Assembly (NCBI GenBank): GCA_963855995.1
Contig: OY979731.1
Location: forward strand, 1,885,001-1,949,000
Length of the DNA stretch: 64,000 bases
DNA from: Muricea muricata
Taxonomy: Eukaryota; Cnidaria; Anthozoa; Malacalcyonacea; Plexauridae
Reading direction: 5' to 3'
Shown here: positions 1 to 45,177 of the stretch, in pieces
How positions within the stretch are numbered: the first letter of the stretch is position 1
Layout: every line of letters begins with the position of its first letter
Position numbers and translations under genes: made by a program
Notes under the pieces: generated by a model
Seen by the model: only the letters and a program-made list of their open reading frames with translations
What the model was told of the DNA's origin: nothing
Databases searched by the model: none

Positions 1-760
1 AGCTTTAATTACACAGAAAATCAATGAATGATCACTGATATCTAAAGAATAGACTCCGCTTGCTACCACGCGATGAATATTATTTGGCAAAAATGAGATC
101 TATTGTTGTTTTACTGGATTGTGTTATTCTAGTTGCCGACGTGATGAGCTGTTCAAATGAAAACGCACGCGCAAGTGTTTGTAGACGTGATTTGGCAGTT
201 GATCTCTGTTGGTAGTCGACATTGAAATCTCCCATTAGAATGACTTCGGCATTTACTTGGATTTTTGACAAATCGTTCTTGAATTTTTCAATGAAAGTTT
301 CAATGTTAAAATCTGGTGGTCTATAGGCTGAACAAATAAACAGGGACTATGTTTTAGGACGTATGATTTCAATCCAAGAGGTCTCAATATGACTGCTTTG
401 CAATTCCCCGCGCGAGCAAAACGGTAGACCATTGCGAACATAAAATGCCGTTCCCCCACCGGTTTTATCTGTACGATCATTTCGAGTTAAAGAGTAATTG
501 GGAATGATCAATTCGGCAGTCGTAGTTGAAGGTTTAAGCCATGTCTCCGATATAGCAATTACATCAAACGGATTTTTACTGATAAATAGACGCAGACTGT
601 CAATTTTTGGAAGCAAACTTCTCACATTGAGATGGCATACCTTGAGTCCCCTTGTACGACATTCTTTTACTTCAAAGTTGAAAGGTCCAGGGTTAGTTTC
701 AACATCTCCAGACAAACGTATCAATACAGCAACCAGAGAAAAGTTTATAAAGATCCTCAT
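1..760 (-). mobile_element. 5' part of a non-LTR retrotransposon: 2A peptide plus AP-endonuclease, degraded
   Basis: Read on the minus strand from an ATG at 758-760. A short hydrophobic leader is followed by a 2A-type motif (DVETNPGP, codons ending at 683), and about 19 residues later by an AP-like endonuclease typical of CR1/L2-type elements. Motifs in order: LNVRSLLPK, ISETWL, GGGTAFYVRN, SAYRPPDF, GDFNVDY, then IDLIFAK and SDHSLIF. The endonuclease would nick target DNA for target-primed reverse transcription. The copy is dead: an in-frame TAG lies at 347-349, and the SDH motif is in another frame from IDLIFAK, so there is a frameshift near 80-90. The reverse transcriptase would lie beyond position 1. 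The open frame extends upstream to 997, but the first 79 residues look like untranslated sequence. Clade assignment is inference. Confidence 0.85.
683..727 (-). other. 2A-like ribosome-skipping motif
   Basis: The codons encode VLIRLSGDVETNPGP. The C-terminal part fits the 2A consensus D-V/I-E-x-N-P-G-P exactly. In known 2A sequences the ribosome skips the Gly-Pro bond. Skipping here would detach a 25-residue leader (from the ATG at 760) from the endonuclease polyprotein. Confidence 0.85.
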
Positions 761-1000
761 TCCAATAAGTAGTTTAGTGGAGGTTGTTAAATATTTCTGT
801 TTGACCGTTGACTTACGTAATTTTGCGTTATACAGTGGTTTCGCACCAGCGAGTTCTTTGGAGATGAAAATAATTGCCACGTTGCCTGCAGTATGAATTC
901 TTGCTTCATTTTTAATTGTAACATCACCAAGAATCAAATAAATATACAGTATATTCACTAAATTGTACGAGCGTAAAAATCCGCGGCCAACCGCCATTGC

Positions 1001-2630
1001 GGCGCGGGCTTTCTATTTCTAATTGCTTATCTAATCTGATTGTAGAAAAAATATGTTAGAGAATGTATTTTTAAATGTTAACATTTCGATTAATGTCATC
1101 ATGTGAACAAAGATTTTAAATGGAAAGCTCGGAATATTGTGATAGTAATTAGTATATGTACATGTATTTCCTTTAATAACTAAGTATTCACATTAAAAAC
1201 GTTTAAACAAATACCTTGTGTGTTCGATGCATCTCGCAAAGACGTTCCACGGCCTTCAAAAGAGGCGAACGAAGTTCGCTTATTTTATCGGCCGCCATCT
1301 TGTATAATCGTTATCATAATTAATTTGTATAATTCCGCATAATAATTTGCATAATCTCGGTTGCTAGGGCAAAAAGTTCAGCTATCGGGGGTATAACGGG
1401 TGGAATTGATTAACCGTTCTCTACCGTACTGAGTGAAAATTGGTGAATGGTTGAGCCCGCGCAGACGGTTCGAGATTGGATTGCGGTTGGAAGTTGGAAA
1501 TCGTAAATTACGATGTCCAATGATGAAAAGTAGGAAGTTGAATAGAGCGATCTGAAATGTTCAATTCTGGAAAAATGAAAAGAAATCCAAGAATCGTAAA
1601 CTTTACAATGTTCGATTATGAACAGGAATTGAATGTTGAATGTTGAAATGCAAACTTACACGTATATTGGAAGTACAATTGATTCAAGATTCACATTATG
1701 TGTTCTACACACAGTCTTGTCGTCCAAAGGACCCACGAATAGTCCACGGGTTTCGATATTTTATTTTTTTTTTATTTAGCTTAGCAATTGGGGCAGGGTC
1801 ACCACAACAGCGTGAGCCAATTACTGTGGGCCCGTATTACCTATCCCACCCTGTCGACTAGTTGTTTTGTTGTCTTGTCGTTGATTGTAAGACAGCGAAC
1901 TCATGAAAGTAAATTAAAGGTTGTGTTTATATTTTATTCACACTTACCGAGCTCCAGAAAAGGACAAGACGTTGGGGCTTTGTGCCACTTGCTTAGCGTT
2001 GCGATTGGTAACAGAATTCTAACCTACAATGCCCAACCTAACAAAAAACCTTTGATCGCGAGTGAACCAAAATATATCCAGGTTTTCCCAGCTCAAAGCG
2101 TCAGGAGGCCCTTGCAAAAGCATTGAGCAATATCAAAAACGAAACTGTGGCATCTGTGGATAGTGTAGGTAAGGTACAGCCCAAGTCTCGGGAAGTCAAT
2201 TGTACTGGTGCTGTTGAAGCCACTCATCTATAATCTGGTCATGCCGTTGTTTTGTATAAAGTAAGTATTTATTTAATGATCAATTTGAACTCGTCTCTAT
2301 TTGGATCAGTAAGATTTCGTTGTTTTTTTTGTCTATATTTCACTCAGTTCATTTCAGGATTATGTGATTTTTGAAAGGTGAAGTCTTACTGGAGTCCAAA
2401 CATCACTCCTTCAATGGCGGAGGTAGGAAATATTGGTGTATTTAATCATCCTGTGTAGTAATCTTTGTCCCGGTTCAACACGACATATTGAATTTTCTAT
2501 TGATAACACCAATGAAATTTAAATGTTTTAGATTGGGCTAAAGAAATAAATGACGTTTCAGATTGTGAAATATGCTAATTTTGCACGTGGCGTGACGAAG
2601 ATCCGATGTACTCGTTGTTCTTCCTGTGGT
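1001..2630. other. No recognisable gene
   Basis: AT-rich sequence with short open frames only (for example 1640-1861 and 1788-2126) that show no family resemblance. An ATGGCGGAG followed by GTAGG near 2414 could be a tiny first exon, but nothing supports it further. Confidence 0.5.
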
Positions 2631-2635
2631 CAGAG

Positions 2636-2854
2636 ATGGCGGACAATAACATCATTTTACAAAGCATCTCGAGTGATTTTGCTGCTATTCTGGCCGGAAA
2701 AGGTAAGCAGGGTAGATAGTTTTGTTTTGGTATTGCAGATTTGTTATATTTATTTCATATTTACGTTTATTTGGTTATGTATTTAGAGTTATATGGGTTG
2801 TTCAACATGAAGCGAAGTCATGATTGATTTACTGAGAATGGAGAAGTTTTATTG
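2636..2854 (+). CDS. Possible two-exon 5' end of an unknown gene
   Basis: Exon 1 (2636-2702) starts ATGGCGGAC and reads MADNNIILQSISSDFAAILA-GK, ending at AAAAG|GTAAGC. The first acceptor downstream (TTATGTATTTAG, exon 2787-2854) completes the split codon as Glu and continues ELYGLFNMKRSHD to a TGA at 2825-2827. The same frame then stays open (FTENGEVLL) to a second good donor, TTG|GTATGT. Either this is a 35-residue peptide, or the TGA is a nonsense change in a longer decayed gene. No later exon was found and no family is recognised. Confidence 0.35.
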
Positions 2855-2859
2855 GTATG

Positions 2860-4105
2860 TATACATTTGGTTAAAATATAATAGTGTTAAAAATAGATAG
2901 TTGGGCATATTTTGATTTGGGGCATAATATGGCAGAGGATGTGAATTTAGAGCACATGTGCTTCAAGTTTATTTTATGCTTCATACTGCCTTTCAAATAT
3001 GTGCTGGACCTGGGAAAGATGTAGATATTGTTAGGTTTACAAAAATGGTTACTGTAATGGGCAAAATGGCTGTAAATGTTTGATAGAAATATCGATAGGC
3101 CATTGCTTCCAGGAGGGGGGTCATGGTACCCTATATACCCGAAATTATGCTGCTAATTTAAAAAAATACCAGGGGTTAGGGTAGGGACCCTTTTTCATTT
3201 TACGACAAAAGCTTGTTAATTTATTTTTGCCTAAAGGTGACAAACAAAGCAAATATTGGTTGAAATTATGAGAGCAAATTGGCCAAATTAAAAATAATGA
3301 CAAATGATTTGAAATGACAACAGGGGCACATGCATTGACTAAAGAGATAACAAATTTTAGAATGAAATATCACAACATTAGGACTCCTCCAACAGTGTCT
3401 CTGTACAAAGCGAAACTTTGAAATATTAAAATTTCTTTTTATATGATTGTTAATTTCCAGTCTTTGAGATGTCTGCCTCTTTTTTGTACAGTAGAGCAGT
3501 GCCATATATTCAATTATTAGCTATTTGTAGGTGTAGCAATGTCTTTTTCGGCAATTTGAAATGCCCGCCTGAAACACTAACAACAAAATATTTATTTGGA
3601 GATATTGTGCGAAAGTAATTTGAAAAAGTTCTGATTTGATTAGACTTGCAGTAACGTGGGTTTTTTTTAAATGTGATATTTTAGATGCAAATCACATGTA
3701 AGATGTTTGTTCAAAGACATGGTTTGTCTTGGGGATGAGTGATGACTGCAGGTATTATGCTTATTTTGTTTGGATATAGATGTACTGTAGCTGTATAGTA
3801 GGATGTGCTTGGGGAAAATGATTTAGATTGGGCAAGAAATGAATTAAAGGGTTAATGGCAACAAAAAAGTCTGTTTATTGCTCAGCTTTTAAAATAACTA
3901 AGAAAGCCTTTTGTTACTGTTTCATATGTGGCTTGATTTTTGAGATATTTGGACTCAAACATGCTAGCTGTCTGCCATCTTGCATATATTCTTGATCTCA
4001 TTACATGATGTCACTAGTGGATAACCCTTGCAAAATCACTCGTAATAGAGTAAGAAACAATAGCTGGCCGAAATGTTGTTACTCATTAGATGATATCAAA
4101 TAGCA
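2860..4105. other. No recognisable gene
   Basis: AT-rich sequence. The open frame at 3266-3505 has no domain signature and low-complexity composition. No repeat structure was noticed. Confidence 0.5.
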
Positions 4106-5060: not shown

Positions 5061-8000
5061 GCACTACAATACATGCATACATACATGCATGGACACGAGG
5101 CTGAACTAGAATACATACATGTGAATGGACACATAGGGCTGCACCGCATACATACATACCTGTGCATGGACATGAAGGCAAACTACAAGGCATATATACC
5201 TACATGGGCATCGACAATAAGGCCGCACTACAATGCATGCATATATAGATGCATACCTGTGCATGGACAATAAGGTTGCACTACAAGGCATATATACATA
5301 CATGGGCATCGACAATAAGGCCGCACTGCAATGCATGGATAGATAGATATATACATACATGGACATCGAGAATAAGGCTGCACTACAATGCATGCATACA
5401 TATATACCTACATGGGCATCGACAATAAAGCTGCAGTACAATGCATACATACATAGATACATACCTGTGCATGGACAATAAGGTTGCACTACAATATATA
5501 CCTACATGGGCATCGACGATAAGGCTGCACTACAATGCATGCGTACATAGATACATACCTGTGCATTGACAATAAGGTTGCATTACAATACATACATACA
5601 TGTGCATGGATATGAAGCCAAATTAGAAGGGATACATACATACAAGGATGAACTAGAATGAATGCATGCATGCATGCGCATGGACATGAAGCCAAACTAC
5701 AAGGCATATATACATACATGGGCATCGACAATAAGGCCGCACTACAATGCATGCATAGATAAATATATACATACATGGACATCGAGAATAAGGCCGCACT
5801 ACAAGGCATGCATACATACATACATGTGTATGGAGATGAAGTCAAACTACAAGGCATATATACATACCTACATGGGCATCGACAATAAGGCTGCAGTACA
5901 ATGCATGCATACATAGATACATACCTGTGCATGGACAATAAGGTTGCACTACAATACATAGCTACATGTGCATGGACATGAAGCCAAACTACAAGGCATA
6001 TATATATACCTACATGGGCATCGACGATAAGGCTGCACTACAATGCATGCGTACATAGATACATACCTGTGCATGGAGAATAAGGTTGCACTACAATACA
6101 TACGTACATGTGCATGGACATGGACAATAAGGCTGCACTACAAGGCATATATACATACATACATGGGCATCGACGATAAGGCTGCACTACAATGCATGCG
6201 TACATAGATACCTACATGTGCATGGACATGAAGCCAAACTACAAGGCATATATACATACATGCATGGGCATCGACAATAAGGCTGCACTACAATGCATGC
6301 ATATATAGATACATACATACCTGTGCATGGACATGAAGCCAAACTACAAGGCATATATACATACATACATGGGCATCGACAATAAGGCTGCACTACAATG
6401 CATGCATACATAGATACATACCTGTGCATTGACAATAAGGTTGCATTACAATACATACATATAAACATGTGCATGGATATGAAGCCAAATTACAAGGGAT
6501 ACATACATACAAGGATGAACTAGAATGAATGCATGCATGCATGCGCATGGATAATAAGGTTGCACTACAATACATACCTACATGCGTATGGACATGAAGC
6601 CAAACTACAAGGCATATATACCTACATGGGCATCGACAATAAGGCTGTACTACAATGCATACATACATACATAGGCATCGACAATAAGGCTGCACTACAA
6701 TACATACATACCTGTGCATGGACATGAAGCCAAACTACAAGGCATATATACATACCTACATGGGCATCGACAATAAGGCTGCACAGATAGATATATACCT
6801 GTGCATGGACAATAACGTTGCACTACAATACATACATACATGTGCATGGACATGAAGCCAAACTACAAGGCATATATACATACCTACATGGGCATCGACA
6901 ATAAGGCTGCTCTACAATGCATGCATAGATAGATACATACCTGTGCATGGACAATAAGGTTGCACTACAATACATACATACATGTGCATGGACATGAAGC
7001 CAAACTACAAGGCATATATACATACATACATGGGCGTCGAGAATAAGGTTGCATTAGAATACATACTTACATGTGCATGGACATGAAGCCAAACTACAAG
7101 GCATGTATACCTGTGCATGGACAATAAGGGTGCACTACAATACATATATACATGTGCATGGACATGAAGCCAAACTACAAGGCATATATACATACATACA
7201 TGGGCATCGACGATAAGGCCGCACTACGATGCATGCATAGATAGATACATACCTGTGCATGGACATGAAGCCAAACTACAAGGCATATATACCTACATGG
7301 GCATCGACGATAAGGCCGCACTACAATGCATGTATAGCTGTGCATGGACAATAAGGTTGCACTACAATAGATACATACATGTGCATGCAGATGAAGCCAA
7401 ACTACAAGGCATATATACATACCTACATGGGCATCGACGATAAGGCCGCACTACAATACATACATACATGTGCATGGACATGAAGCCAAACTACAAGGCA
7501 TATAGACATACCTACATGGGCATCGACAATAAGGCTGCACTACAATGCATGGACATGAAGCCAAACTAGAAGGCATATATACATACCTACATGGGCATCG
7601 ACAATAAGGCTGCACTACAATACATATATACATGTGCATGGACATGAAGCCAAACTACAAGGCATATATACATACATGGGCATCGACGATAAGGCTGCAC
7701 TACAATGCGTGTATAGCTGTGCATGGACAATAAGGTTGCACTACAATACATACATACCTACATGGGCATCGACGATAAGGCCGCACTACAATGCATGTAT
7801 ACCTGTGCATGGACATGAAGCCAAACTACAAGGCATATATACATACCTACATGGGCATCGACAATAAGGCTGCACTACAATACATACATACATGTGCATG
7901 GACATGAAGCCAAACTACAAGGCATATATACATATCTACATGGGCATCGACAATAAGGCTGCACTACAATGCATGTATACCTGTGCATGGACATGAAGCC

Positions 8001-10241
8001 AAACTACAAGGCATGTATAGCTGTGCATGGACAATAAGGTTGCACTACAATACATACATACATGTGCATGGACATGAAGCCAAACTACAAGGCATATATA
8101 CATACATACATGGGCATCGACGATAAGGCCGCACTACAATGCATACATACATGTGCATGCACATGAAGGCAAACTACAAGGCATATATACATACCTACAT
8201 GGGCATCGACAATAAGGTTGCATTAGAATACATATATACATGTGCATGGACATGAAGCCAAACTACAAGGCATATATGGATACCTACATGGGCATCGACA
8301 ATAAGGCTGCACTACAATGCATGCATAGATAGATACATACCTGTGCATGCACTACAATACATATATACATGTGCATGGACATGAAGCCAAACTACAAGGC
8401 ATATATACATACTTACATGGGCATCGATGATAAGGCCGCACTACAATGCATGTATACCTGTGCATGGACATGAAGTTAAACTACAAGGCATATATGGATA
8501 CCTACATGGGCATCGACAATAAGGGTGCACTACAATGCATGTATACCTGTGCATGGAGATGAAGCCAAACTAAAAGGCATATATACATAGATACATGGGC
8601 ATCGACGATAAGGCCGCACTACAATGCATACATAAATGTGCATGGACATGAAGGCAAACTACAAGGCATATATACATACGTACATGGGCATCGACAATAA
8701 GGCTGCTCTACAATGCATATATACATAGATACATGGGCATCGACGATAAGGCCGCACTACAATGCATGTATACCTGTGCATGGACAATAAGGCTGCTCTA
8801 CAATGCATAGATAGATACATACCTGTGCATGGACATGAAGCCAAACTACAGGGCATATATACATACATACATGGGTATCGACGATAAGGCCGCACTACAA
8901 TGCATGTATACCTGTGCATGGACAATAAGGTTGCACTACAATACATACATACATGTGCATGGACATGAAGCCAAACTACAAGGCATATATACATACATAC
9001 ATGGGCATCGGCGATAAGGCTGCACTACAATGCATGCGTAGATAGATACATACATGTGCATGGAGATGAAGGCAAACTACAAGGCATATATACATACATA
9101 CATGGGCATCGACGATAAGGCTGCACTACAATGCATGCGTAGATAGATACATACCTGTGCATGGACAATAAGGTTGCACTACAATAGATACATACCTGTG
9201 CATGGACATGAAGCCAAACTACAAGGCATATATGGATACCTACATGGGCATCGACAATAAGGCTGCACTACAATGCATGCATAGATAGATACATACATAC
9301 ATGGGCATCGATGATAAGGCCGCACTACAATGCATGTATACCTGTGCATGGACATGAAGCCAAACTACAAGGCATATATGGATACCTACATGGGCATCGA
9401 CAATAAGGCTGCTCTACAATGCATATAATACATAGATACATGGGCATCGATGATAAGGCCGCCCTACAATGCATGTATACCTGTGCATGCACTACAATAC
9501 ATATATACATGGGCATTGACAATAAGGCTGCACTACAATGCATGTATACCTGTGCATGGAGATGAAGCCAAACTACAAGGCATATATACACACCAACATG
9601 GGCATCGACAATAAGGCTGCACTACAATGCATGTATACACCCTGTGCATGGAGATGAAGCCAAACTACAAGGCATATATACATACCTACATGGGCATGGA
9701 CAATAAGGTTGCACTACAACGCATGTATACCTGTGCATGGGCATGAAGCCAAACTACAAGGCATATATACATACTTACATGGGCATCGATGATAAGGCCG
9801 CACTACAATGCATGTATACCTGTGCATGGACAATAAGGTTGCACTACAGTACATACATTACAGGTGCATGGACATGAAGCCAAACTACAAGGCATATATA
9901 CATACCTACATGGGTATCGACGATAAGGCCGCACTACAATGCATGTATACCTGTGCATGGACATGAAGCCAAACTACAAGGCATATATACATACCTACAT
10001 GGCATCGACAATAAGGCTGCACTACAGTGTGTGTATAGATATATACATACCTGTGCATGGACATGAAGCCAAACTACAAGGCATATATACATACCTACAT
10101 GGGCATTGACAATAAGGCTGCACTACAATGCATGTATACCTGTGCATGGACAATAAGGTTGCACTACAGTACATACATACATGTGCATGGACATGAAGCC
10201 AAACTACAAGGCATATATGGATACCTACATGGGCATTCGAC
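5060..10241. repeat. Compound satellite array, about 5.2 kb
   Basis: Tandem, related subunits of roughly 42-48 bp. One type carries GGACATGAAGCCAAACTACA then AGGCATATATACATAC. A second carries GGGCATCGACAATAAGGC then TGCACTACAATGCATG. A third carries GGACAATAAGGTTGCACTAC. They alternate to give about 90-bp dimers in varying order. All open frames here (up to 156 codons) are products of repeat periodicity. The right end is cut by an assembly gap. Confidence 0.95.
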
Positions 10242-10441
10242 NNNNNNNNNNNNNNNNNNNNNNNNNNNNNNNNNNNNNNNNNNNNNNNNNNNNNNNNNNN
10301 NNNNNNNNNNNNNNNNNNNNNNNNNNNNNNNNNNNNNNNNNNNNNNNNNNNNNNNNNNNNNNNNNNNNNNNNNNNNNNNNNNNNNNNNNNNNNNNNNNNN
10401 NNNNNNNNNNNNNNNNNNNNNNNNNNNNNNNNNNNNNNNNN
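10242..10441. other. Assembly gap (200 N)
   Basis: A run of exactly 200 N separates two unrelated satellites. A round number usually marks a scaffold gap of unknown real size, so the satellite boundary itself is not seen. Confidence 0.98.
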
Positions 10442-13400
10442 AAAGTGTGTAACAGTGTGTAAAAGTTATTGAATTAGCTGTATATGAGTACATAAAAGTA
10501 TAAGTATATATGAGTACGTAAAAGTATAAGTATATATGAGTACATAAAAGTATAAGTATATATGAGTACATAAAAGTATAAGTATATATGAGTACATAAA
10601 AGTATAAGTATATATGAGTACATAAAAGTATAAGTATATATGAGTGCATAAAAGTATAAGTATATATGAGTGCATAAAAGTATAAGTATATATGAGTGCA
10701 TAAAAGTATATATATGAGTACATAAAAGTATAAGAATATATGAGAATATATGAGTACATAAAAGTATAAGAATATATGAGTACATAAAAGTATAAGAATA
10801 TATGAGAATATATGAGTACATAAAAGTATAAGAATATATGAGTACATAAAAGTATAACAATATATGAGTACATAAAAGTATAAGAATATATGAGTACATA
10901 AAAGTATAACAATATATGAGAATATATGAGTACATAAAAGTATAAGAATATATGAGTACATAAAAGTATAAGAATATATGAGTACATAAAAGTATAAGAA
11001 TATATGAGTACATATAAGTGTAAAAGTGTGTAAAAGTGTGTAAAAGTGTGTAAAAGTGTGTAAAAGTGTGTAAAAGTGTGTAAAAGTGTGTAAAAGTGTG
11101 TAAAAGTTATTGAATTAGCTGTATATGAGTACATAAAAGTATAAGTATATATGAGTACGTAAAAGTATAAGTATATATGAGTACATAAAAGTATAAGTAT
11201 ATATGAGTACATAAAAGTATAAGTATATATGAGTACATAAAAGTATAAGTATATATGAGTACATAAAAGTATAAGTATATATGAGTACATAAAAGTATAA
11301 GTATATATGAGTACATAAAAGTATAAGTATATATGAGTACATAAAAGTATAAGTATATATGAGTGCATAAAGGTATAAGTATATATGAGTGCATAAAAGT
11401 ATAAGTATATATGAGTGCGTAAAAGTATAAGTATATATGAGTGCATAAAAGTATAAGTATATATGAGTGCATAAAAGTATGAGTTTATATGAGTGCATAA
11501 AAGTATAAGAATATATGAGTGCATAAAAGTATAAGAATATATGAGTACATAAAAGTATAAGAATATATGAGTACATAAAAGTATAAGAATATATGAGTAC
11601 ATAAAAGTATGAGAATATATGAGTACATAAAAGTATAAGAATATATGAGAATATATGAGTACATAAAAGTATAAGAATATATGAGTACATAAAAGTATAA
11701 CAATATATGAGAATATATGAGTACATAAAAGTATAAGAATATATGAGAATATATGAGTACATAAAAGTATAAGAATATATGAGTACATAAAAGTATAAGA
11801 ATATATGAGTACATAAAAGTATAAGAATATATGAGAATATATGAGTACATAAAAGTATAAGAATATATGAGTACATAAAAGTATAAGAATATATGAGAAT
11901 ATATGAGTACATAAAAGTATAAGAATATATGAGTACATAAAAGTATAAGAATATATGAGTACATAAAAGTATAAGAATATATGAGAATATATGAGTACAT
12001 AAAAGTATAAGAATATATGAGTACATAAAAGTATAAGAATATATGAGTACATAAAAGTATAACAATATATGAGAATATATGAGTACATAAAAGTATAAGA
12101 ATATATGAGTACATAAAAGTATAAGAATATATGAGTACATAAAAGTATAACAATATATGAGAATATATGAGTACATAAAAGTATAAGAATATATGAGTAC
12201 ATAAAAGTATAAGAATATATGAGTACATAAAAGTATAAGAATATATGAGTACATAAAAGTATAACAATATATGAGAATATATGAGTACATAAAAGTATAA
12301 GAATATATGAGTACATAAAAGTATAAGAATATATGAGTACATAAAAGTATAAGAATATATGAGTACATAAAAGTATAAGAATATATGAGTACATATAAGT
12401 GTAAAAGTGTGTAAAAGTGTGTAAAAGTGTGTAAAAGTGTGTAAAAGTGTGTAAAAGTGTGTAAAAGTGTGTAAAAGTGTGTAAAAGTGTGTAAAAGTGT
12501 GTAAAAGTGTGTAAAAGTGTGTAAAAGTGTGTAAAAGTGTGTAAAAGTGTGTAAAAGTGTGTAAAAGTGTGTAAAAGTTATTGAATTAGCTGTATATGAG
12601 TACATAAAAGTATAAGTATATATGAGTACGTAAAAGTATAAGTATATATGAGTACGTAAAAGTATAAGTATATATGAGTACGTAAAAGTATAAGTATATA
12701 TGAGTACATAAAAGTATAAGTATATATGAGTACATAAAAGTATAAGTATATATGAGTACATAAAAGTATAAGTATATATGAGTACATAAAAGTATAAGTA
12801 TATATGAGTGCATAAAAGTATAAGTATATATGAGTGCATAAAAGTATAAGTATATATGAGTGCATAAAAGTATAAGTATATATGAGTGCGTAAAAGTATA
12901 AGTATATATGAGTGCATAAAAGTATAAGTATATATGAGTGCATAAAAGTATGAGTATATATGAGTGCATAAAAGTATGAGTTTATATGAGTGCATAAAAG
13001 TATAAGAATATATGAGTACATAAAAGTATAAGAATATATGAGTACATAAAAGTATAAGAATATATGAGTACATAAAAGTATAAGAATATATGAGTACATA
13101 AAAGTATGAGAATATATGAGTACGTAAAAGTATAAGAATATATGAGTACATAAAAGTATAAGAATATATGAGAATATATGAGTACATAAAAGTATAAGAA
13201 TATATGAGAATATATGAGTACATAAAAGTATAAGAATATATGAGTACATAAAAGTATAAGAATATATGAGTACATAAAAGTATAACAATATATGAGTACA
13301 TATGAGTACATAAAAGTATAAGAATATATGAGAATATATGAGTACATAAAAGTATAAGAATATATGAGTACATAAAAGTATAAGAATATATGAGTACATA

Positions 13401-16264
13401 AAAGTATAAGAATATATGAGAATATATGAGTACATAAAAGTATAAGAATATATGAGTACATAAAAGTATAAGAATATATGAGAATATATGAGTACATAAA
13501 AGTATAAGAATATATGAGTACATAAAAGTATAAGAATATATGAGTACATAAAAGTATAAGAATATATGAGTACATAAAAGTATAAGAATATATGAGTACA
13601 TAAAAGTATAACAATATATGAGTACATAAAAGTATAACAATATATGAGAATATATGAGTACATAAAAGTATAAGAATATATGAGTACATAAAAGTATAAG
13701 AATATATGAGTACATAAAAGTATAAGAATATATGAGTACATAAAAGTATAAGAATATATGAGTACATAAAAGTATAAGAATATATGAGTACATAAAAGTA
13801 TAACAATATATGAGAATATATGAGTACATAAAAGTATAAGAATATATGAGTACATAAAAGTATAAGAATATATGAGTACATAAAAGTATAAGAATATATG
13901 AGTACATAAAAGTATAAGAATATATGAGTACATATAAGTGTAAAAGTGTGTAAAAGTTTGTAAAAGTGTGTAAAAGTGTGTAAAAGTGTGTAAAAGTGTG
14001 TAAAAGTGTGTAAAAGTGTGTAAAAGTGTGTAAAAGTGTGTAAAAGTGTGTAAAAGTGTGTAAAAGTTATTGAATTAGCTGTATATGAGTACATAAAAGT
14101 ATAAGTATATATGAGTACGTAAAAGTATAAGTATATATGAGTACGTAAAAGTATAAGTATATATGAGTACATAAAAGTATAAGTATATATGAGTACATAA
14201 AAGTATAAGTATATATGAGTACATAAAAGTATAAGTATATATGAGTACATAAAAGTATAAGTATATATGAGTGCATAAAAGTATAAGTATATATGAGTGC
14301 ATAAAAGTATAAGTATATATGAGTGCATAAAAGTATAAGTATATATGAGTGCGTAAAAGTATAAGTATATATGAGTGCATAAAAGTATAAGTATATATGA
14401 GTGCATAAAAGTATGAGTATATATGAGTGCATAAAAGTATGAGTTTATATGAGTGCATAAAAGTATAAGAATATATGAGTACATAAAAGTATAAGAATAT
14501 ATGAGTACATAAAAGTATAAGAATATATGAGTACATAAAAGTATAAGAATATATGAGTACATAAAAGTATGAGAATATATGAGTACGTAAAAGTATAAGA
14601 ATATATGAGTACATAAAAGTATAAGAATATATGAGAATATATGAGTACATAAAAGTATAAGAATATATGAGAATATATGAGTACATAAAAGTATAAGAAT
14701 ATATGAGTACATAAAAGTATAAGAATATATGAGTACATAAAAGTATAACAATATATGAGTACATATGAGTACATAAAAGTATAAGAATATATGAGAATAT
14801 ATGAGTACATAAAAGTATAAGAATATATGAGTACATAAAAGTATAAGAATATATGAGTACATAAAAGTATAAGAATATATGAGAATATATGAGTACATAA
14901 AAGTATAAGAATATATGAGTACATAAAAGTATAAGAATATATGAGAATATATGAGTACATAAAAGTATAAGAATATATGAGTACATAAAAGTATAAGAAT
15001 ATATGAGTACATAAAAGTATAAGAATATATGAGTACATAAAAGTATAAGAATATATGAGTACATAAAAGTATAAGAATATATGAGTACATAAAAGTATAA
15101 CAATATATGAGAATATATGAGTACATAAAAGTATAAGAATATATGAGTACATAAAAGTATAAGAATATATGAGTACATAAAAGTATAAGAATATATGAGT
15201 ACATAAAAGTATAAGAATATATGAGTACATAAAAGTATAAGAATATATGAGTACATATAAGTGTATAAGTGTGTATAAGTGTGTAAAAGTGTGTAACAGT
15301 GTGTAAAAGTTATTGAATTAGCTGTATATGAGTACATAAAAGTATAAGTATATATGAGTACATAAAAGTATAAGTATATATGAGTACATAAAAGTATAAG
15401 TATATATGAGTACATAAAAGTATAAGTATATATGAGTACATAAAAGTATAAGTATATATGAGTACATAAAAGTATAAGTATATATGAGTACATAAAAGTA
15501 TAAGTATATATGAGTACATAAAAGTATAAGTATATATGAGTGCATAAAAGTATAAGTATATATGAGTGCATAAAAGTATAAGTATATATGAGTGCATAAA
15601 AGTATAAGTATATATGAGTGCATAAAAGTATAAGTATATATGAGTGCATAAAAGTATAAGTATATATGAGTGCATAAAAGTATAAGTATATATGAGTGCA
15701 TAAAAGTATAAGTATATATGAGTGCATAAAAGTATAAGTATATATGAGTGCATAAAAGTATAAGTATATATGAGTGCATAAAAGTATGAGTATATATGAG
15801 TGCATAAAAGTATAAGAATATATGAGTACATAAAAGTATAAGAATATATGAGTACATAAAAGTATAAGAATATATGAGTACATAAAAGTATAAGAATATA
15901 TGAGTACATAAAAGTATGAGAATATATGAGTACATAAAAGTATAAGAATATATGAGTACATAAAAGTATAAGAATATATGAGAATATATGAGTACATAAA
16001 AGTATAAGAATATATGAGAATATATGAGTACATAAAAGTATAAGAATATATGAGTACATAAAAGTATAAGAATATATGAGTACATAAAAGTATAAGAATA
16101 TATGAGTACATAAAAGTATAAGAATATATGAGTACATAAAAGTATAAGAATATATGAGTACATAAAAGTGTAAGAATATATGAGTACATAAAAGTGTAAA
16201 AGTGTGTAAAAGTGTGTAAAAGTGTGTAAAAGTGTGTAAAAGTGTGTAAAAGTGTGTAAAAGTA
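10442..16264. repeat. 26-bp satellite in higher-order repeats
   Basis: The basic unit is about 26 bp (AGTATATATGAGTACATAAA then AGTATA). Three variants are ordered within each block: AGTATATATGAGTACA first, AGTATATATGAGTGCA next, and AGAATATATGAGTACA last. Each block opens with a GTGTAAAA octamer run and a unique spacer, TTATTGAATTAGCTG, at 10466, 11107, 12578, 14067 and 15310, giving block lengths of 641, 1471, 1489 and 1243 bp. Three 26-bp units equal 78 bp and the minus strand has no stops, which creates open frames of up to 930 codons. Confidence 0.95.
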
Positions 16265-18945
16265 TATTAGAGTATAAAAGTAGAAGTGTATAGAAGTGAA
16301 AAAATATATAAGTATATAAAAGTAAAAAAATATATAAGTATATAATTAAAAAAATATATAAGTATATAAAAGATTATAAGAGTATAAGTATATAAAAGTG
16401 TATAAAAGTATTAGTGTATATGACTATATAAAAGTATAAGTATATATGAGTATATAAAAGTATATGTGTATATGAGTACATAAAAGTATATAAATATATA
16501 AAAGTATAAATATATAAGTAAAAAATATATAAGTAAATAAAAGATTATAAGAGTATAAGTAAATAAAAGATTATAAGAGTATAAGTAAATAAAAGATTAT
16601 AAGAGTATAAGTAAATAAAAGATTAACAAAGTATAAGTAATTAAAAGAGTATAAGTAAATAAAAGATTATAAGAGTATAAGTAAATAAAAGATTATAAGA
16701 GTATAAGTAAATAAAAGTGTATAAAAGTATAAGTGTATAAAAGTATAAGTGTATAAAAGTAGAAGTGTATAAAAGTATAAGTGTATAGAACTATATAAAA
16801 GTATAAGTGTAAAAATATATAAGTGTAAAAATATATAAGTATATAAAAGTATAAGTATATATATGAGTATATAAAAGATTATAAAAGTATAAGTGTATAA
16901 AAGTAAAAAATATTCAAGTATATAAAAGTACAAGTATAAAAAGTACAAGTACAAGTATATAAAAGTACAAGTGCAAGTATATAAAAGTACAAGTGCAAGT
17001 ACATAAAAGTAAAAGTACAAGTGCAAGTATATAAATGTACAAGTATATATGAGTATGTAAAAGTATAAAAATATATAAGTAAAAAATATATAAGTATATA
17101 AAAGAATATAAAAGTATAAGTGTATAAAAGTATAAGTGTTTAAAAGTAAAAAAGTAAAAAAATAAATAAATACATAAAAGTATAAGTATAAAAATATATA
17201 AGTAAAAAATATATAAGTATATAAAAGAATATTAAAGTATAAATGTATAAAGTATAAGTGTATAAAAGTATAAGTGTATAAAAGTATAGGTGTTAGAAGT
17301 GAAAAATATATAAGTATATAAAAGTATAAGTATATAAAAGTTTATAAAAGTATATAAGTATAAAAGTACATAAAAGTACAAGTACATATGAGTATGTAAA
17401 AGTATAAGGATATATGAGTATATTAAAGTATAAGTATATAAAAGTATATAAAAGTATAAGTATATATGAGTACATAAAAGTATAAGTATATATGAGCACA
17501 TAAAAATATGTAAGTATATAGAAGTGTAAGTATATATATGAGTATATAAAAATATATAAGTATATAAAAGATTATGAAAGTATAAGTATATAAAATTATA
17601 AAAATATATAAGTATATAAAAGTATAAGTACATATGAGTATGTAAAAGTATAAGTATAAAAGTATAAGTATATATGAGTATATAAAAGTATAAGTATATA
17701 TGAGTATATAAAAGTATAAGTATATATGAGTATATAAAAGTATAAGTATATATGAGTATATAAAAGTATAAGTATATATGAGTATATAAAAGTATAAGTA
17801 TATAAAAGCAAAAGTATATATGAGTACATAAAAGTATAAGAATATACAAGTACATAAAAGTACAAGTATATAAGTATATAAAAGTATATAAGTATATAAA
17901 AGTATAAGTATACATAAGTACATAAAAGTATAAGTATATATATAAGTATATAAAAGTAAAAAAATACATAAGTATATAAAAGTGTATAAAAGTGTAAGTG
18001 TATAAAAGTATAAGTGTATAGAAGTGAAAAAATATATAAGTATATAAAAGTATGAGTGTAAAAATATATAAGTATATAAAAGCATAAGTATATATGAGTA
18101 CATAAAAGTACAAGTATATATGAGTACATAAAAGTATACGTACGTATATATGAGTACATAAAAGTATACGTATATATGAGTACATGAAAGTATACGTATA
18201 TATGAGTACATAAAAGTATAAGAATATACGAGTATATAAATGTATAAGTATATATAGGAGTATATAAAAGTAAAAAAATATATAAGTATATAAAAGATTA
18301 TAAGTATGTAAAAGATTATAAGTATGTAAAAGATTATAAGTATATAAAAGATTATAAGTATATAAAAGATTATAAGTATATAAAAGATTATAAGTATGTA
18401 AAAGATTATAAGTATATAAAAGATTATAAGTATATAAAAGATTATAAGTGTATAAAAGTATAGGTGTTAGGAGTGAAAAAATATGAAAGTATAAGTATAA
18501 AAATATATCAGTATAAAAATATATAAGTACATGAAAGTACAAGTACATGAAAGTACAAGTATATATTATGAGTATGTAAAAGTATAAGTATATAAAAGTA
18601 TAAGTATATAAAAGCATAGGTGTATAGAAGTGAAAAAATATATAAGTATATAAAAGTACAAGTATATAAAAGTACAAGTACATGAAAGTACAAGTACATA
18701 TGAGTACATAAAAGTATAAAAATATATAAGTATATAAAAGTATAAGTATATATATGAGTATATAAGAGTATAAAAATATATAAGTATATAAAAGATTATG
18801 AAAGTATAAGTATATAAAATTATAAAAATATATAAGTATATAAAAGTATAAGTACATAAAAGTATACAAATATATAAGTACATAAAAGTATAAAAATATA
18901 TAAGTATATAAAAGTATAAATAAAGTAAATATTATATACTCTGAT
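16265..18945. repeat. Degenerate AT-rich tandem repeats related to the 26-bp satellite
   Basis: A long stretch of AAAAGTATAAGTATATATGA-type units with irregular length. It includes a cleaner subarray at about 18290-18450 (18-bp unit ATTATAAGTATATAAAAG) and one at 16550-16700 (AAATAAAAGATTATAAGAGT). The stop-free minus frame of 545 codons at 17232-18869 is low complexity and not a gene. Confidence 0.9.
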
Positions 18946-28067: not shown

Positions 28068-29750
28068 CTAAAAGCTCCCTTCTTCACAAGCGTTTTTCTT
28101 GTGATTTAAAGTTGTAAAAATTTCGCTCGTCTTTCGTGAAAGCATCGACTGTCGCAAGTTGCCATTTGCATCGCGACCGAGGCGTCTTTTTAAACCCAAA
28201 AAATGCATGAACGAACGTCGAAAGTCGGGGCTGACGATAGTGTATATTAAAGGATTCGCCGAAGAATTCGCGAGAACGCTGATGATGCTCGCGAAAAACA
28301 GCGTTCGCGTGTAACGATAACGCGACATGTCCGCGAAGACGATTGAAAGACGAAACGCGGTGAACGGCAGCATCGTAACGAAGAACACGATAACGACGGG
28401 CGTGAGAACGCGCAGGGCTTTCGCGTTTCGTTGTATTTGCTTCGTGAGGTCGTCCCGAAGTGCACTGCGCGATGAGGACTTTGTCATCTGCCGGTGGAAT
28501 CCGGAACTCGCCTTGAGGGACACCCGGATTCGAAGGTAGTAGTACAGTATCAAGGCCAGCGGCAGGACGTAGAATAACACGTTTAAGACTATGAAGTAGG
28601 CGATGTGAGTGGCATGGTTCGGCCAAACAACATCGCATACCTGAATTCTTGGTATCAGGCGCATGTACACCCATAAGGGAACAGAGATTATAACGACTGG
28701 GAGTAACCAAGTTGCAACTAGGATGTAGCGAGCTTTTTTTCGTGATAGTTGACTGCGCATTATGTAAACGATTCCTCGGTATCTAAACAAAAAGAACGAA
28801 ATGAAAACCATAAGTTATCATAATCATCATCCTTATCGATATATTCACCACTATCATCATCATCATCATCATCATCAGTACTTTTCCCAATACCATCATC
28901 ATCATCAATACTATCCCCAATATCACCATCATCATCAATACTATCCCCAATACCATCATCATCATCAATGCTATCCCCAATACCATCATCACCATCAATA
29001 CCATCCCCAATACCATCATCATCAACAATACTATCCCCAATACCATCATCATCAACAATACTATCCCCAATACCATCATCATCATCAATACTATCACAAA
29101 TACCATCATCATCATCAATGCTATCACCCAATACTATCATGGTAATCAATACTATCCCCAATACCATCATGATCATCGTCGTCGTCAGTAGCACCACAAT
29201 CAATATCATCATTAACAGCATCACAATCGATATCATCATTAACACCGCCACAATCACCATCATCTACTAACCTATGAAAAGATATGGCCACAATGGACAT
29301 GATGGACACACCATAAAACGAATCAGACAACGGGTAAATCACGCGACAAAAAAACTCTCCAAATGGCCAGACAAAATTCTTGATCTCCAGGCCCAATATG
29401 AATGTATGCGAAAGGGTAAGAACACCAATATCAGCGATCGCCAAATTCTGGATAAAAAGATTCGAAATCGACTTCTTCATATGTGGATTGCGACGAACAG
29501 AAAGGATGACCAAAACGTTTCCTAACAACCCGAAGACGACCAGTATGCATTGGATAATATAGAATAACACTTCTGCGTAGTAAGGAAATAAGAATTGTTG
29601 CGTTAACGAACCGTTCTGCGCCGGTTTCCCCATCTGAGGCGAGTTCACCACATCGCTTGAGTTTAAACTGACGTTCGTTGAATAGTTTTGAGCCATCGTG
29701 TTGTATGTCTCCCGTGGGAAAGCTTGAATGAATCTAGCTATTTTAGGCAA
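28068..29750 (-). CDS. Class A (rhodopsin-like) G-protein-coupled receptor, two exons
   Basis: Seven-helix membrane receptor, likely for a peptide or amine. Exon 1 is 29750 (or 29696)-29272 and exon 2 is 28782-28068. Donor AG|GTTAGT and acceptor TTTTTGTTTAG join a phase-2 split Arg codon. From the second Met (29696) the protein is 379 residues (397 from the first). N-terminal glycosylation sites NYS, NVS and NSS favour an outside N-terminus. Landmarks: N60 (GNVLVI), D89 (LAIAD), C117 and C191 disulphide pair, H141-R142-Y143 in place of DRY, W167, P216, P281 and N318-PLIY. The usual TM6 Trp is Met279 (TMLPF). It ends in a Lys/Arg-rich tail. The ligand cannot be inferred; the general look is of a neuropeptide-type receptor. 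Confidence 0.9.
28783..29271 (-). repeat. GPCR intron filled with a GAT/ATC minisatellite
   Basis: The 489-bp intron is mostly ATC/GAT triplets. A roughly 30-bp secondary unit (CCATCATCATCATCAA then TACTATCCCCAATA) repeats about eight times between 28889 and 29160. Open frames in it rich in Asp, His or Met are artefacts. Confidence 0.9.
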
Positions 29751-40465: not shown

Positions 40466-40949
40466 CAGTATCCTTAAAATTCGGGGTCCTTGCTTACGAC
40501 AGTGTATATAAGCAACTGAAAACGTTAAGCATACCTCAACAAGACTCCAGTTATTACTCTATATATGCCAGTCTTGCTTCATATCTGAGTCCAAGCTAAT
40601 CCTCAAGTTTTGAAGCTTCTGTTGTCTTACCCCGCAACGCAAACTTCTGCCGTCGGACAGATAGTCCAGGAAAATCTGGAAAATGAATTAGGCACACGCT
40701 TTCTAAGCCTAAACACACGTACTGTTTGTTTTGGTAAAAGCAAATACCAATATTTCTCCCATTTATTAAAGAGGCACAGGAACAATGATACGCCTCTGAC
40801 AGATATCTCCAATGAACTGCAGTAGAAATACAAGTAATTTGTGTGTAATTAAAAGGTATTAATAATTAATAAATGGTTTGATTGTTGCCTTAAAAGTGGC
40901 AAGAGAAATTTTAAACTTTAATCAACATCTCATGCAACTCTTGTTTTCA

Positions 40950-41405
40950 TTTAGCCATGCAGGACATGAGTGTTGAGAAAACTCTCAGACAAACTCTCAC
41001 TTGTCAACTCTCATCAACTCTCATACAACTCTTGTTCTCGTTTAACCAGGACATGAGAGTTGAAAAAACTCTCATACAAACTCTTGCTTGTCAACTCTCA
41101 TCAACTCTCATGCAACACTTGTTCTCGGTTGACCAGGACATGAGAGTTGAGAAAACTCTCATACAAACTCTTGCTTGTCAACTCTCATCAACTCTCATGC
41201 AACTCTTGTTCTCGTTTGACCAGGACATGCGAGTTGAGAAAACTCTCATGCAAACTCTCGCTTCTCCACTCTCATTAACTCTCATGCAACTCTTGTTCAT
41301 CAACTCTCATGCAACTCTTGTTCTCGTTTGACCAGGACATGCGAGTTGAGAAAACGCTCATACAAACTCTCGCTTGTCCACTCTCATTAACTCTCATGCA
41401 ACTCT
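40950..41405 (+). repeat. 87-bp minisatellite (about 5 units)
   Basis: Unit: CAACTCTTGTTCTCGTTTGA, CCAGGACATGAGAGTTGAGA, AAACTCTCATACAAACTCTC, GCTTGTCAACTCTCATCAAC. It contains a short hairpin (GAGAGTTGAGAAAACTCTC). Because 87 bp is 29 codons the array stays open, but the frame is not a gene. Related arrays are at 44373-44660 and 60646-61315. Confidence 0.9.
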
Positions 41406-44099: not shown

Positions 44100-45177
44100 T
44101 TATCGCGATGTTGTTTCACGTTTTAAACACTCTTCGACCAATTCCTTGATGTCGTCTTGAATGTTCAGCGGTTTCACGGATGGCCGGTATCTCTTTCTTG
44201 GGCGTCCTCTGTGGTCGATCAAAAATTTCTCAAAATTCCACGTGACGTCTGTCGTGCGCAGAGGTGTATAGAACAATTTGTGTGGGTCTCCGATTAAGGT
44301 ACCAGGATTTGGACAAACGGACTAAAAAGAATGGAAAATGATCTAGAGATAACTGAAATATTTTTCGAAGCATTAGCTAAACTGGGACGAGAGTTTGTAT
44401 GAGAGTTTTCTCAACTCTTTTATATATGTCCTGGTCAAACGAGAACAAGAGTTGCATGAGATTTGATGAGAGTTGACAAGCGACAGTTCGTACGGGAGCC
44501 TTCGGAACTCTCATGTCCTGGTCAAACAAGAACATGAGTTGATGAGAGTTGACAAGAGTTGACAAGCGAGAGTTTGTATGAGAGTTCGCTCAACTCTCGT
44601 ATCCTGGTCAAGCCAGAACAAGAGTTGCATGAGAATTGAGAGACGAGAGTTTGCATGAAAAGAAGCCCAAACTATATGGCTGAAAAATCCCCATAAATTT
44701 CTACAAATCCTTCATTCCTACCTTGAGCCACGTGAAGAGCTGATCTTCTTTGGCACCATTCACGGCTCTTTTGACGAGCAAATCAAAACTTGGTTGAAAT
44801 CCACCCCCAGGTTTAACGTACTGCACACAATGTAAGATTTCAATACCATCACCAGGCTCTTGTAAACCAAACTGATTACAAGGAACGCCATATACTCTTA
44901 ACGGACAACGCTTCGTGTTAAACTTTTTTATCAATGCATTCAATTCTTTATACTGTTCAACAGTTAGACCTCAGAACGTCGCCACGTTTGTGACGAGGAC
45001 TATTTGGCCCTTGTTCTGAGCGAAAGTAAATTTTCCACCCAACAGAAACTCGTCTTCAAATTCGTGTAGACTCTTCTCCGTTTTCGTACAATTCGAGCTC
45101 AAAGCAGAATCGTTTCTCGACAACACGCAAACAAAGTTAGCAGTTAGCACTGCAGCTAAAAAGCTGAGCGAAACCAT
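44100..45177 (-). CDS. GPX: Glutathione peroxidase, selenocysteine-containing, secreted type
   Basis: Reduces peroxides with glutathione or another thiol. Exon 1 is 45177-44722 and exon 2 is 44321-44100; donor AAG|GTAGGA and acceptor CTTTTTAG join in phase 0, giving 225 residues. The start Met opens a hydrophobic signal-like segment ([20 protein letters not shown]), so secretion is likely. The active site is LVTNVATF-U69-GLTVEQY, where U is an in-frame TGA at 44971-44973 followed by undisturbed coding. The rest of the catalytic set is Q102 (GVPCNQFG) and W180-N181 ([11 protein letters not shown]). Exon 2 opens with [20 protein letters not shown] and ends RETTSR-stop. Length and layout match the GPX3/plasma group. 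A SECIS element is required in the 3' UTR; I could not locate one. Confidence 0.92.
44322..44721 (-). repeat. GPX intron with 87-bp-type minisatellite
   Basis: The 400-bp intron holds about three irregular, inverted-orientation copies (44373-44660) of the GAGAGTTG/CTCTCATC repeat seen at 40950 and 60646. Confidence 0.8.
44971..44973 (-). other. UGA selenocysteine codon of the glutathione peroxidase
   Basis: TGA lies between NVATF and GLTVEQY, exactly where the peroxidase family has its catalytic Sec or Cys. Confidence 0.93.

What the first reader, a model, noticed from the sequence alone, without database searches (positions are those of the whole stretch)
683..760. 2A motif fused to a hydrophobic N-terminal leader in a non-LTR retrotransposon
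From the ATG at 760 the predicted product begins MRIFINFSLVAVLIRL, running straight into SGDVETNPGP, with the endonuclease starting about 19 residues later. 2A-like motifs are known in some non-LTR elements, and N-terminal 2A sequences with signal-peptide-like leaders have been described in other marine invertebrate proteins. The combination suggests that skipped and unskipped products could go to different places.
Basis: partly seen in the sequence, partly recalled or inferred. Interest (0 to 1): 0.75.

Follow-up and report, generated by a model that had tools for sequence, protein, structure and literature searches.

The report
Retrotransposon leader peptide ended by 2A
The window holds the broken front end of an animal jumping gene whose protein carries a known ribosome-skipping signal just before its DNA-cutting domain; relatives suggest that the signal ends a leader of about 100 amino acids, not the 26-residue leader first proposed.

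Summary
On the minus strand, DVETNPGP (706-683) follows a hydrophobic tract and runs in frame into an APE-type endonuclease; 0 of 100 shuffles gave it. 2A motifs in non-LTR retrotransposons are already known, so this is a new member of a known kind. This copy is dead: an in-frame TAG at 349-347 and a later frameshift break the endonuclease. The proposed start is probably wrong. The frame is open to 1012 with a strong-context ATG at 997 (28 of 5000 shuffles as open). Of 12 relatives with a 2A-like motif, 10 have an in-frame Met before it, all first at 84-108 aa; here it is 105; none has one at 26. In one mussel-assembly pair the leader looks under purifying selection (dN 0.33, dS 1.88). Best reading: a leader of about 100 aa released from endonuclease-RT by skipping. 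The hydrophobic tract fits the exit-tunnel context that 2A needs. Dual targeting is possible but unproven: a signal peptide is unsupported from ATG997 (score 0.7) and borderline from ATG760 (3.1; recalled cut-off 3.5).

The parts
683..997 (-). Leader of 105 aa from ATG997 to the last P of NPGP (probable true N-terminus of the ORF)
   Evidence: Frame open from 1012 (28 of 5000 dinucleotide shuffles as open); start context; length within the 84-108 aa of 10 relatives. Coordinates checked.
995..997 (-). Probable start codon ATG997, context gccgcaATGg
   Evidence: First in-frame ATG after the upstream stop
758..760 (-).
713..760 (-). Hydrophobic tract MRIFINFSLVAVLIRL directly before the 2A core
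   Evidence: The 12 residues before SGD average 2.05 on the Kyte-Doolittle scale, rank 3 of 94 windows of the leader
683..712 (-). 2A core SGDVETNPGP; predicted skip between the last G and P (P codon 685-683)
350..631 (-). N-terminal part of the APE-type endonuclease domain
   Evidence: Pfam PF03372, E 1.8e-6, residues 123-212
347..349 (-). In-frame TAG stop that breaks the endonuclease
83..346 (-). Continuation of the endonuclease in the same frame after the stop (YRPP, GDFN), ended by TAA at 82-80
   Evidence: Pfam PF14529, E 4.9e-9
1..87 (-). Further endonuclease sequence with SDH in another frame (frameshift); the rest of the element, with the RT, is off the window

Best explanation
This is the 5' part of a decayed copy of an APE-type, CR1/L2-like (clade name recalled) non-LTR retrotransposon from an unidentified animal. 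In intact copies a single ORF would start at the equivalent of ATG997 and encode a hydrophobic leader of about 105 aa whose end is a 2A (StopGo) sequence, then endonuclease and reverse transcriptase. Shown here: motif, frame, endonuclease homology, open upstream frame, the same leader-2A layout in relatives, and purifying selection on the leader in one relative pair. Inferred: the ribosome skips the G-P bond, releases the leader and goes on to make endonuclease-RT with an N-terminal proline. The hydrophobic tract next to the core probably serves first as the exit-tunnel context that 2A needs. What the released leader does is unknown; association with membranes is the likeliest guess.
For: Motif, frame and endonuclease. 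Upstream frame open: 28 of 5000 shuffles, 8 of 2000 sampled real stretches nearby. First-Met-to-NPGP lengths: window 105; relatives 107, 90, 95, 86, 86, 97, 84, 84, 108, 108 (10 of the 12 relatives). None of these ten has a Met at 26. The L082/L084 leaders align without gaps over 84 codons, 50 identical, dN 0.33, dS 1.88; without the last 30 codons 28 of 54 are identical, reached by 1 of 3000 column shuffles. The nearest relative in the endonuclease tree is L027 (84/89), an open leader-2A-EN-RT ORF with a 90-aa leader. Viral variants with N at position 12 or H at position 14 of the core skipped at about 90% or more in rabbit lysate (PMC12846837, section 9); that covers 4 of the 6 non-canonical cores among the 12 relatives, not the D-T-E core of L081 or the D-I-S core of L085.
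Against: Only one copy in the window and no genome to collect others. No leader alignment for the window was tested, and its leader has no Pfam hit. Two of 12 relatives have no in-frame Met: L012 has 38 aa between a stop and its NPGP, L037 is open for 94 aa to the contig edge. L029's frame also runs to the contig edge, so its start is unsure. Five of the ten relatives do have some Met within 40 aa of the motif, at 11, 16, 19, 36 or 37, so a short product is not excluded for them. In L027 and L029 an open leader frame is not improbable (908 and 172 of 2000 shuffles). The L079/L080 leaders give weaker evidence upstream of the 2A (99 of 3000). Skipping was not tested.
Confidence: 0.66

Rival explanations
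1. One reading: translation starts at ATG760 and the 26-residue leader is both signal sequence and 2A, so skipped product stays in the cytosol and unskipped product enters the secretory pathway.
For: The same 26-aa length as the sea urchin NLR sequences, and the same VET/NPG stretch where SignalP placed a cleavage in the tested one (PMC4981915). From ATG760 the recalled von Heijne matrix also puts its best site at VET/NPG, score 3.1.
Against: ATG997 is in frame, upstream and in better context; two more ATGs lie between. The upstream frame is open beyond chance. 0 of 10 relatives have a Met at 26. The score is below the recalled cut-off of 3.5, and 1 of 7 control N-termini passes that cut-off. 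The tested precedent is an NLR protein, not a retrotransposon.
Confidence: 0.15
2. The hydrophobic tract is nothing but the upstream half of the 2A peptide. Neither leader nor tract has a targeting role; 2A merely trims an N-terminal extension.
For: A hydrophobic stretch next to the core (mean 1.35 or more over 12 residues) occurs in the window and in 11 of 12 relatives, L037 being lower at 0.67, whatever the N-terminus. In the F2A ribosome structure such residues form a hydrophobic cluster in the tunnel, and mutating them lowers skipping (PMC12846837, passages). In SpNLR2A6, changes near the core cut recoding; the same changes in a skip-dead background did not alter localisation (PMC4981915).
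Against: It does not explain a leader of 84-108 aa or the selection seen upstream of the 2A half in L082/L084, nor why 8 of 11 leaders but 0 of 7 N-termini of elements without 2A have a hydrophobic stretch in their first 35 residues. That contrast is weak, however: the cut was chosen afterwards, and within leaders the stretch exceeds composition shuffles at p below 0.05 in only 3 of 11.
Confidence: 0.3
3. Chance or decay: a dead copy whose upstream frame is open by accident and whose 2A no longer means anything.
For: The copy has a stop and a frameshift in the endonuclease. The N-terminal hydropathy peak of the window leader is not unusual for its composition (p 0.17).
Against: The 2A core is intact and the upstream frame is open at about 0.5% by chance; relatives share the layout.
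Confidence: 0.1

Closest known systems
[quoted passage not shown] 2013, PMC3708506; not held here, seen only as a citation in PMC4981915, PMC12846837 and PMC11512398)
   Same: APE-type endonuclease, in-frame D(V/I)ExNPGP upstream of it
   Different: This copy is broken and its RT is off the window; whether that paper describes a leader of about 100 aa could not be checked
N-terminal 2A signal sequences of Strongylocentrotus purpuratus NLR proteins (Roulston et al. 2016, PMC4981915; sections 2 and 9 and the first part of section 3 read)
   Same: Hydrophobic residues running into a VETNPGP end; 26 residues if ATG760 were the start
   Different: There the 2A is at the N-terminus of an immune receptor; here an in-frame ATG 79 codons upstream is the likelier start and the cargo is endonuclease-RT
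Leader-2A-EN-RT elements found here as contaminants of prokaryote assemblies (L027, L079, L080, L082, L084) and leader-2A-PHD-EN-RT elements (L081, L085, L086; PHD-like by eye)
   Same: Leader of 84-108 aa, hydrophobic tract, NPGP, endonuclease
   Different: Their ORFs are open; the MGN-type leaders of L080, L082 and L084 lack a hydrophobic stretch in the first 35 residues, the others have one
L1Tc of Trypanosoma cruzi (Heras et al. 2006; citation only)
   Same: 2A in frame with a non-LTR element's proteins
   Different: Protist element; details not checked here

Membership tests
2A-bearing APE-type non-LTR retrotransposon | APE-type endonuclease domain | tested here: met
   Pfam PF03372 and PF14529; profile of the window protein with three relatives matches L1 endonuclease 8sp5 at 3.4e-12
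2A-bearing APE-type non-LTR retrotransposon | 2A core D(V/I)ExNPGP in frame upstream of the endonuclease | tested here: met
2A-bearing APE-type non-LTR retrotransposon | Reverse transcriptase downstream | not testable with these tools
   Outside the window, no genome held; present in the relatives L010, L027, L029, L037, L079-L082, L084-L086
2A-bearing APE-type non-LTR retrotransposon | Intact ORF | tested here: not met
   TAG at 349-347 and a frameshift near 87: a dead copy, which does not bear on family membership
2A / StopGo | Hydrophobic upstream context next to the core | tested here: met
   2.05 mean hydropathy, rank 3 of 94 windows
2A / StopGo | Skipping activity in translation | not testable with these tools
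   needs in vitro translation
N-terminal 2A signal sequence (SpNLR2A type) | 2A within about 26 aa of the start codon | tested here: inconclusive
   ATG760 gives 26 aa, but ATG997 is in frame upstream and favoured
N-terminal 2A signal sequence (SpNLR2A type) | Predicted signal peptide | tested here: inconclusive
   Recalled von Heijne matrix: 3.1 from ATG760, 0.7 from ATG997; SignalP not available
N-terminal 2A signal sequence (SpNLR2A type) | Dual localisation of skipped and unskipped product | not testable with these tools
   needs cell experiments
CR1/L2-like clade of non-LTR elements | RT phylogeny | not testable with these tools
   RT off the window; the endonuclease tree joins it to L027 at 84/89 only; the clade name is recalled

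The most novel reading that the evidence does not exclude
Animal non-LTR retrotransposons carry a mobile leader-2A cassette: a hydrophobic leader of about 85-108 aa, in some signal-like at its N-terminus, made 1:1 with the replication proteins. Unlike the 26-residue NLR case, such a leader is long enough for its first hydrophobic segment to leave the ribosome before the 2A is read. SRP or translocon docking would then come first and could set whether skipping happens, sending a docked fraction of endonuclease-RT to the ER as a fusion and the rest to the cytosol. In artificial polyproteins with an N-terminal signal sequence, some upstream proteins inhibit the 2A reaction when translocated, and the fusion enters the ER (PMC2978324, abstract).
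Probability: 0.22. Interest if true: 0.72.

Novelty: new member of a known kind. Interest (0 to 1): 0.42.

Why it matters
By itself the window element is one more decayed 2A-bearing retrotransposon. The comparison it prompted matters more: related elements share a leader that ends in 2A, in one pair with signs of protein-level selection, and the label (2A or none) needs at least 4 changes on an RT tree of 20 elements. If the leader is a membrane or secretory peptide, a class of retrotransposons makes a product outside the usual ORF1/ORF2 scheme, and it would be a natural case for asking whether SRP docking or ribosome skipping comes first.

Tried and rejected
Viral contigs: a protein search and an RT alignment search confirmed no relative. 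The exact 2A pattern gave 0 hits and the wider one 2, both without endonuclease and judged chance by reading. Plasmid and phage tblastn with the endonuclease gave no match. No second copy in the window. The RT alignment matched 0 of 250 genomes of the family of G003, and the 2A pattern matched 1 of 83 in the family of G002, the known one. Of the 11 leaders, 7 were given to Pfam: 6 had no match and 1 had an E 0.21 match. The recalled von Heijne score does not separate leaders (4 of 11 at 3.5 or more) from controls (1 of 7), p 0.60, so I do not claim signal peptides from it. The hydropathy contrast (8 of 11 against 0 of 7, p 0.004) uses a cut of 1.6 chosen after seeing the values, with L029 just above it at 1.61; within leaders the N-terminal stretch beats composition shuffles at p below 0.05 only in L010, L027 and L086. 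A first RT tree missed L037, L085, L086, L093 and both L1-like elements and was replaced, which still lacks L091 and the second element of L082; L090 and four partial matches of G056 were not used. Of the 43 loci, I judged 6 to be non-LTR elements by reading translations: L010, L011, L012, L027, L029, L037; one search printed 41 of the 43, as L025 and L034 gave no in-frame V/I motif. In a first count of relatives with a Met within 40 aa I had 4 of 10; a recount gave 5 of 10. Chance for the motif was rejected, and a host gene on the endonuclease match.

Full report
What is there. On the minus strand, 760-683 encodes MRIFINFSLVAVLIRLSGDVETNPGP, in one frame with an endonuclease domain. Pfam gives Exo_endo_phos for the first piece (E 1.8e-6) and Exo_endo_phos_2 for the piece after the stop (E 4.9e-9). 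A profile of the window protein with three relatives matches L1 endonuclease structures (best E 3.4e-12). The 2A pattern has one exact match in 64 kb and 0 matches in 100 shuffles with up to three mismatches; the only other hit in the real window has three mismatches and overlaps a predicted tRNA. No whole genome is held.

The copy is dead. The endonuclease is cut by TAG at 349-347, continues in frame to TAA at 82-80, and the SDH part lies in another frame near 87-1. The reverse transcriptase is off the window. So nothing can be said about what this copy makes; the argument is about its family.

Where translation starts. The frame does not begin at ATG760. It is open from 1012, with an in-frame ATG at 997 (gccgcaATGg); two out-of-frame ATGs (924, 909) lie between 997 and 760. 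The 84 codons upstream of ATG760 contain no stop; 28 of 5000 dinucleotide shuffles and 8 of 2000 stretches sampled from 1020-3500 on the same strand are as open.

Relatives. No named animal genome was at hand, but apparent eukaryotic contamination in prokaryote assemblies served. A pattern scan of GTDB contigs gave 43 loci; reading their translations, I judged six to be non-LTR elements. An RT alignment then found 14 matches in assembly G002, the Bathymodiolus brooksi symbiont assembly that holds L011, 4 partial ones in G056 that I did not use, and 4 in two further assemblies of the phylum of G005, the Poribacteria assembly. Eighteen contigs of G002, G121 and G122 were fetched and read. In all, twelve distinct elements carry a 2A-like motif: L010, L012, L027, L029, L037, L079 (same as L011), L080 (same as L055), L081 (same as L053), L082, L084, L085, L086. 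Ten of the twelve have an in-frame Met before it. Distances from the first Met to the last P of NPGP are 107, 90, 95, 86, 86, 97, 84, 84, 108 and 108 aa; the window has 105. L012 has 38 aa after a stop and no Met, L037 has 94 aa open to the contig edge and no Met, and L029's frame also reaches the contig edge. A Met at exactly 26 occurs in none of the ten; some Met within 40 aa occurs in five (L010, L027, L029, L080, L084).

The leader is a protein in at least one pair. The L082 and L084 leaders align over 84 codons without a gap, 50 identical, with 32, 15 and 45 differences at codon positions 1, 2 and 3, dN 0.33 and dS 1.88, while their 150 upstream bases align only with many gaps. Leaving out the last 30 codons, 28 of 54 are identical against 18.1 expected (1 of 3000 shuffles). 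L079 and L080 both begin MGNDI and align ungapped over 86 codons, but outside the 2A half the support is weaker (99 of 3000). dS is near saturation in the five pairs compared. The open frame of the leader itself is improbable by shuffling in eight of the ten relatives (20 to 75 of 2000) but not in L027 or L029 (908 and 172 of 2000).

Composition of the leaders. A hydrophobic stretch directly before the core (12-residue means 1.35 to 2.93) is present in the window and in 11 of the 12 relatives; L037 is lower, 0.67. A hydrophobic stretch in the first 35 residues (11-residue mean at least 1.6, a cut chosen after the fact) is present in 8 of 11 leaders and 0 of 7 N-termini of elements without 2A (p 0.004); L094 among the seven lies at a contig edge. 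Against this, the stretch exceeds composition shuffles at p below 0.05 only in L010, L027 and L086, and a recalled von Heijne matrix passes 4 of 11 leaders and 1 of 7 controls, which is no difference. The window leader itself scores 0.7 from ATG997 and 3.1 from ATG760, and its N-terminal hydropathy peak is ordinary for its composition (p 0.17). A signal peptide is therefore possible but not shown. On both measures the clearest signal-like N-termini are those of L010 and L027.

History of the 2A. On an RT tree of 20 elements, the 2A label needs 5 changes, of which supported branches force 4 (shuffled labels need 6.8 on average); L029, with 2A, sits among four elements of G121 and G122 in which no NPGP was seen, one of them (L094) at a contig edge. 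So the leader-2A unit seems to come and go. In a separate endonuclease tree the window joins L027 (84/89), which has a 90-aa leader and an open EN-RT frame; long branches make this tentative.

How it most likely works. The window's core is canonical, and variants found among the relatives (N at position 12; H at position 14) are classes of which natural examples skipped at about 90% or more in rabbit lysate (PMC12846837, section 9 read); the D-T-E core of L081 and the D-I-S core of L085 are not among those listed. The inferred outcome is release of the leader and continued synthesis of endonuclease-RT. A hydrophobic upstream tract is expected in 2A: in F2A it packs in the exit tunnel (PMC12846837, passages). 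With 26 residues the leader is still inside the ribosome when the 2A is read (a tunnel of roughly 30-40 residues is recalled), so skipping would be decided first, as one would expect for the NLR case (PMC4981915, sections read). With about 105 residues the first hydrophobic segment would already be outside, so docking could come first, and in some artificial polyproteins translocation inhibits the 2A reaction (PMC2978324, abstract).

What is known. 2A in non-LTR elements and N-terminal 2A signal sequences are both in print (PMC4981915; PMC5972666, passages; Odon et al. 2013 by citation only). In the listings and passages of the searches I ran I saw no description of a leader of about 100 aa, but the two most relevant papers are not held, so this is not a claim of novelty. 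Verdict: real, a new member of a known kind, start site probably misread; interest 0.42.

Noticed in passing
window 10481-18910: A very AT-rich, strand-skewed minisatellite of about 8.4 kb (26-bp unit TATATGAGTACATAAAAGTATAAGTA, GC near 0.2, GC skew up to 0.77) produces long ORFs that look spurious.
   Followed up: no
window 31409-60065: A 114-bp tandem repeat recurs as arrays at nine listed starts (31409, 32579, 32814, 36412, 37520, 40074, 53530, 57398, 59830), in both orientations.
   Followed up: no
window 40914-41405, 44388-44639, 60648-61309: An 86-87-bp repeat present in three places; the last stays open for 181 codons.
   Followed up: no
window 28068-29750 (-): Two pieces of a rhodopsin-type GPCR (Pfam 7tm_1) with a 30-bp minisatellite (28864-29177) between them and reaching into the second ORF.
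   Followed up: no
window 5289-10152: A second long, complex tandem-repeat region next to a 200-base gap of N (10242-10441).
   Followed up: no
window 19463, 43743, 43879, 62109: Four predicted tRNA genes, all four above the Rfam tRNA cut-off.
   Followed up: no
L030 (5271 bases) and L041 (5384 bases): Two bacterial assemblies hold a contig with a P2A-linked antibody-like coding sequence, apparently laboratory vector contamination.
   Followed up: no
L004, reverse-strand positions 3557 and 6185: A Planctomycetota MAG contig with two GDVEPNPGP motifs in long open frames, one after a stretch that looks like the end of an LTR/DIRS-type polymerase (judged by eye).
   Followed up: no
G002 (L079-L091): The Bathymodiolus symbiont assembly carries 14 non-LTR RT matches, a sign of host contamination.
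   Followed up: partly
L079, L080, L082, L084: Four leaders from this assembly share an N-terminal pattern MGN(D/S)xxxxRxxIGxF of unknown meaning.
   Followed up: partly
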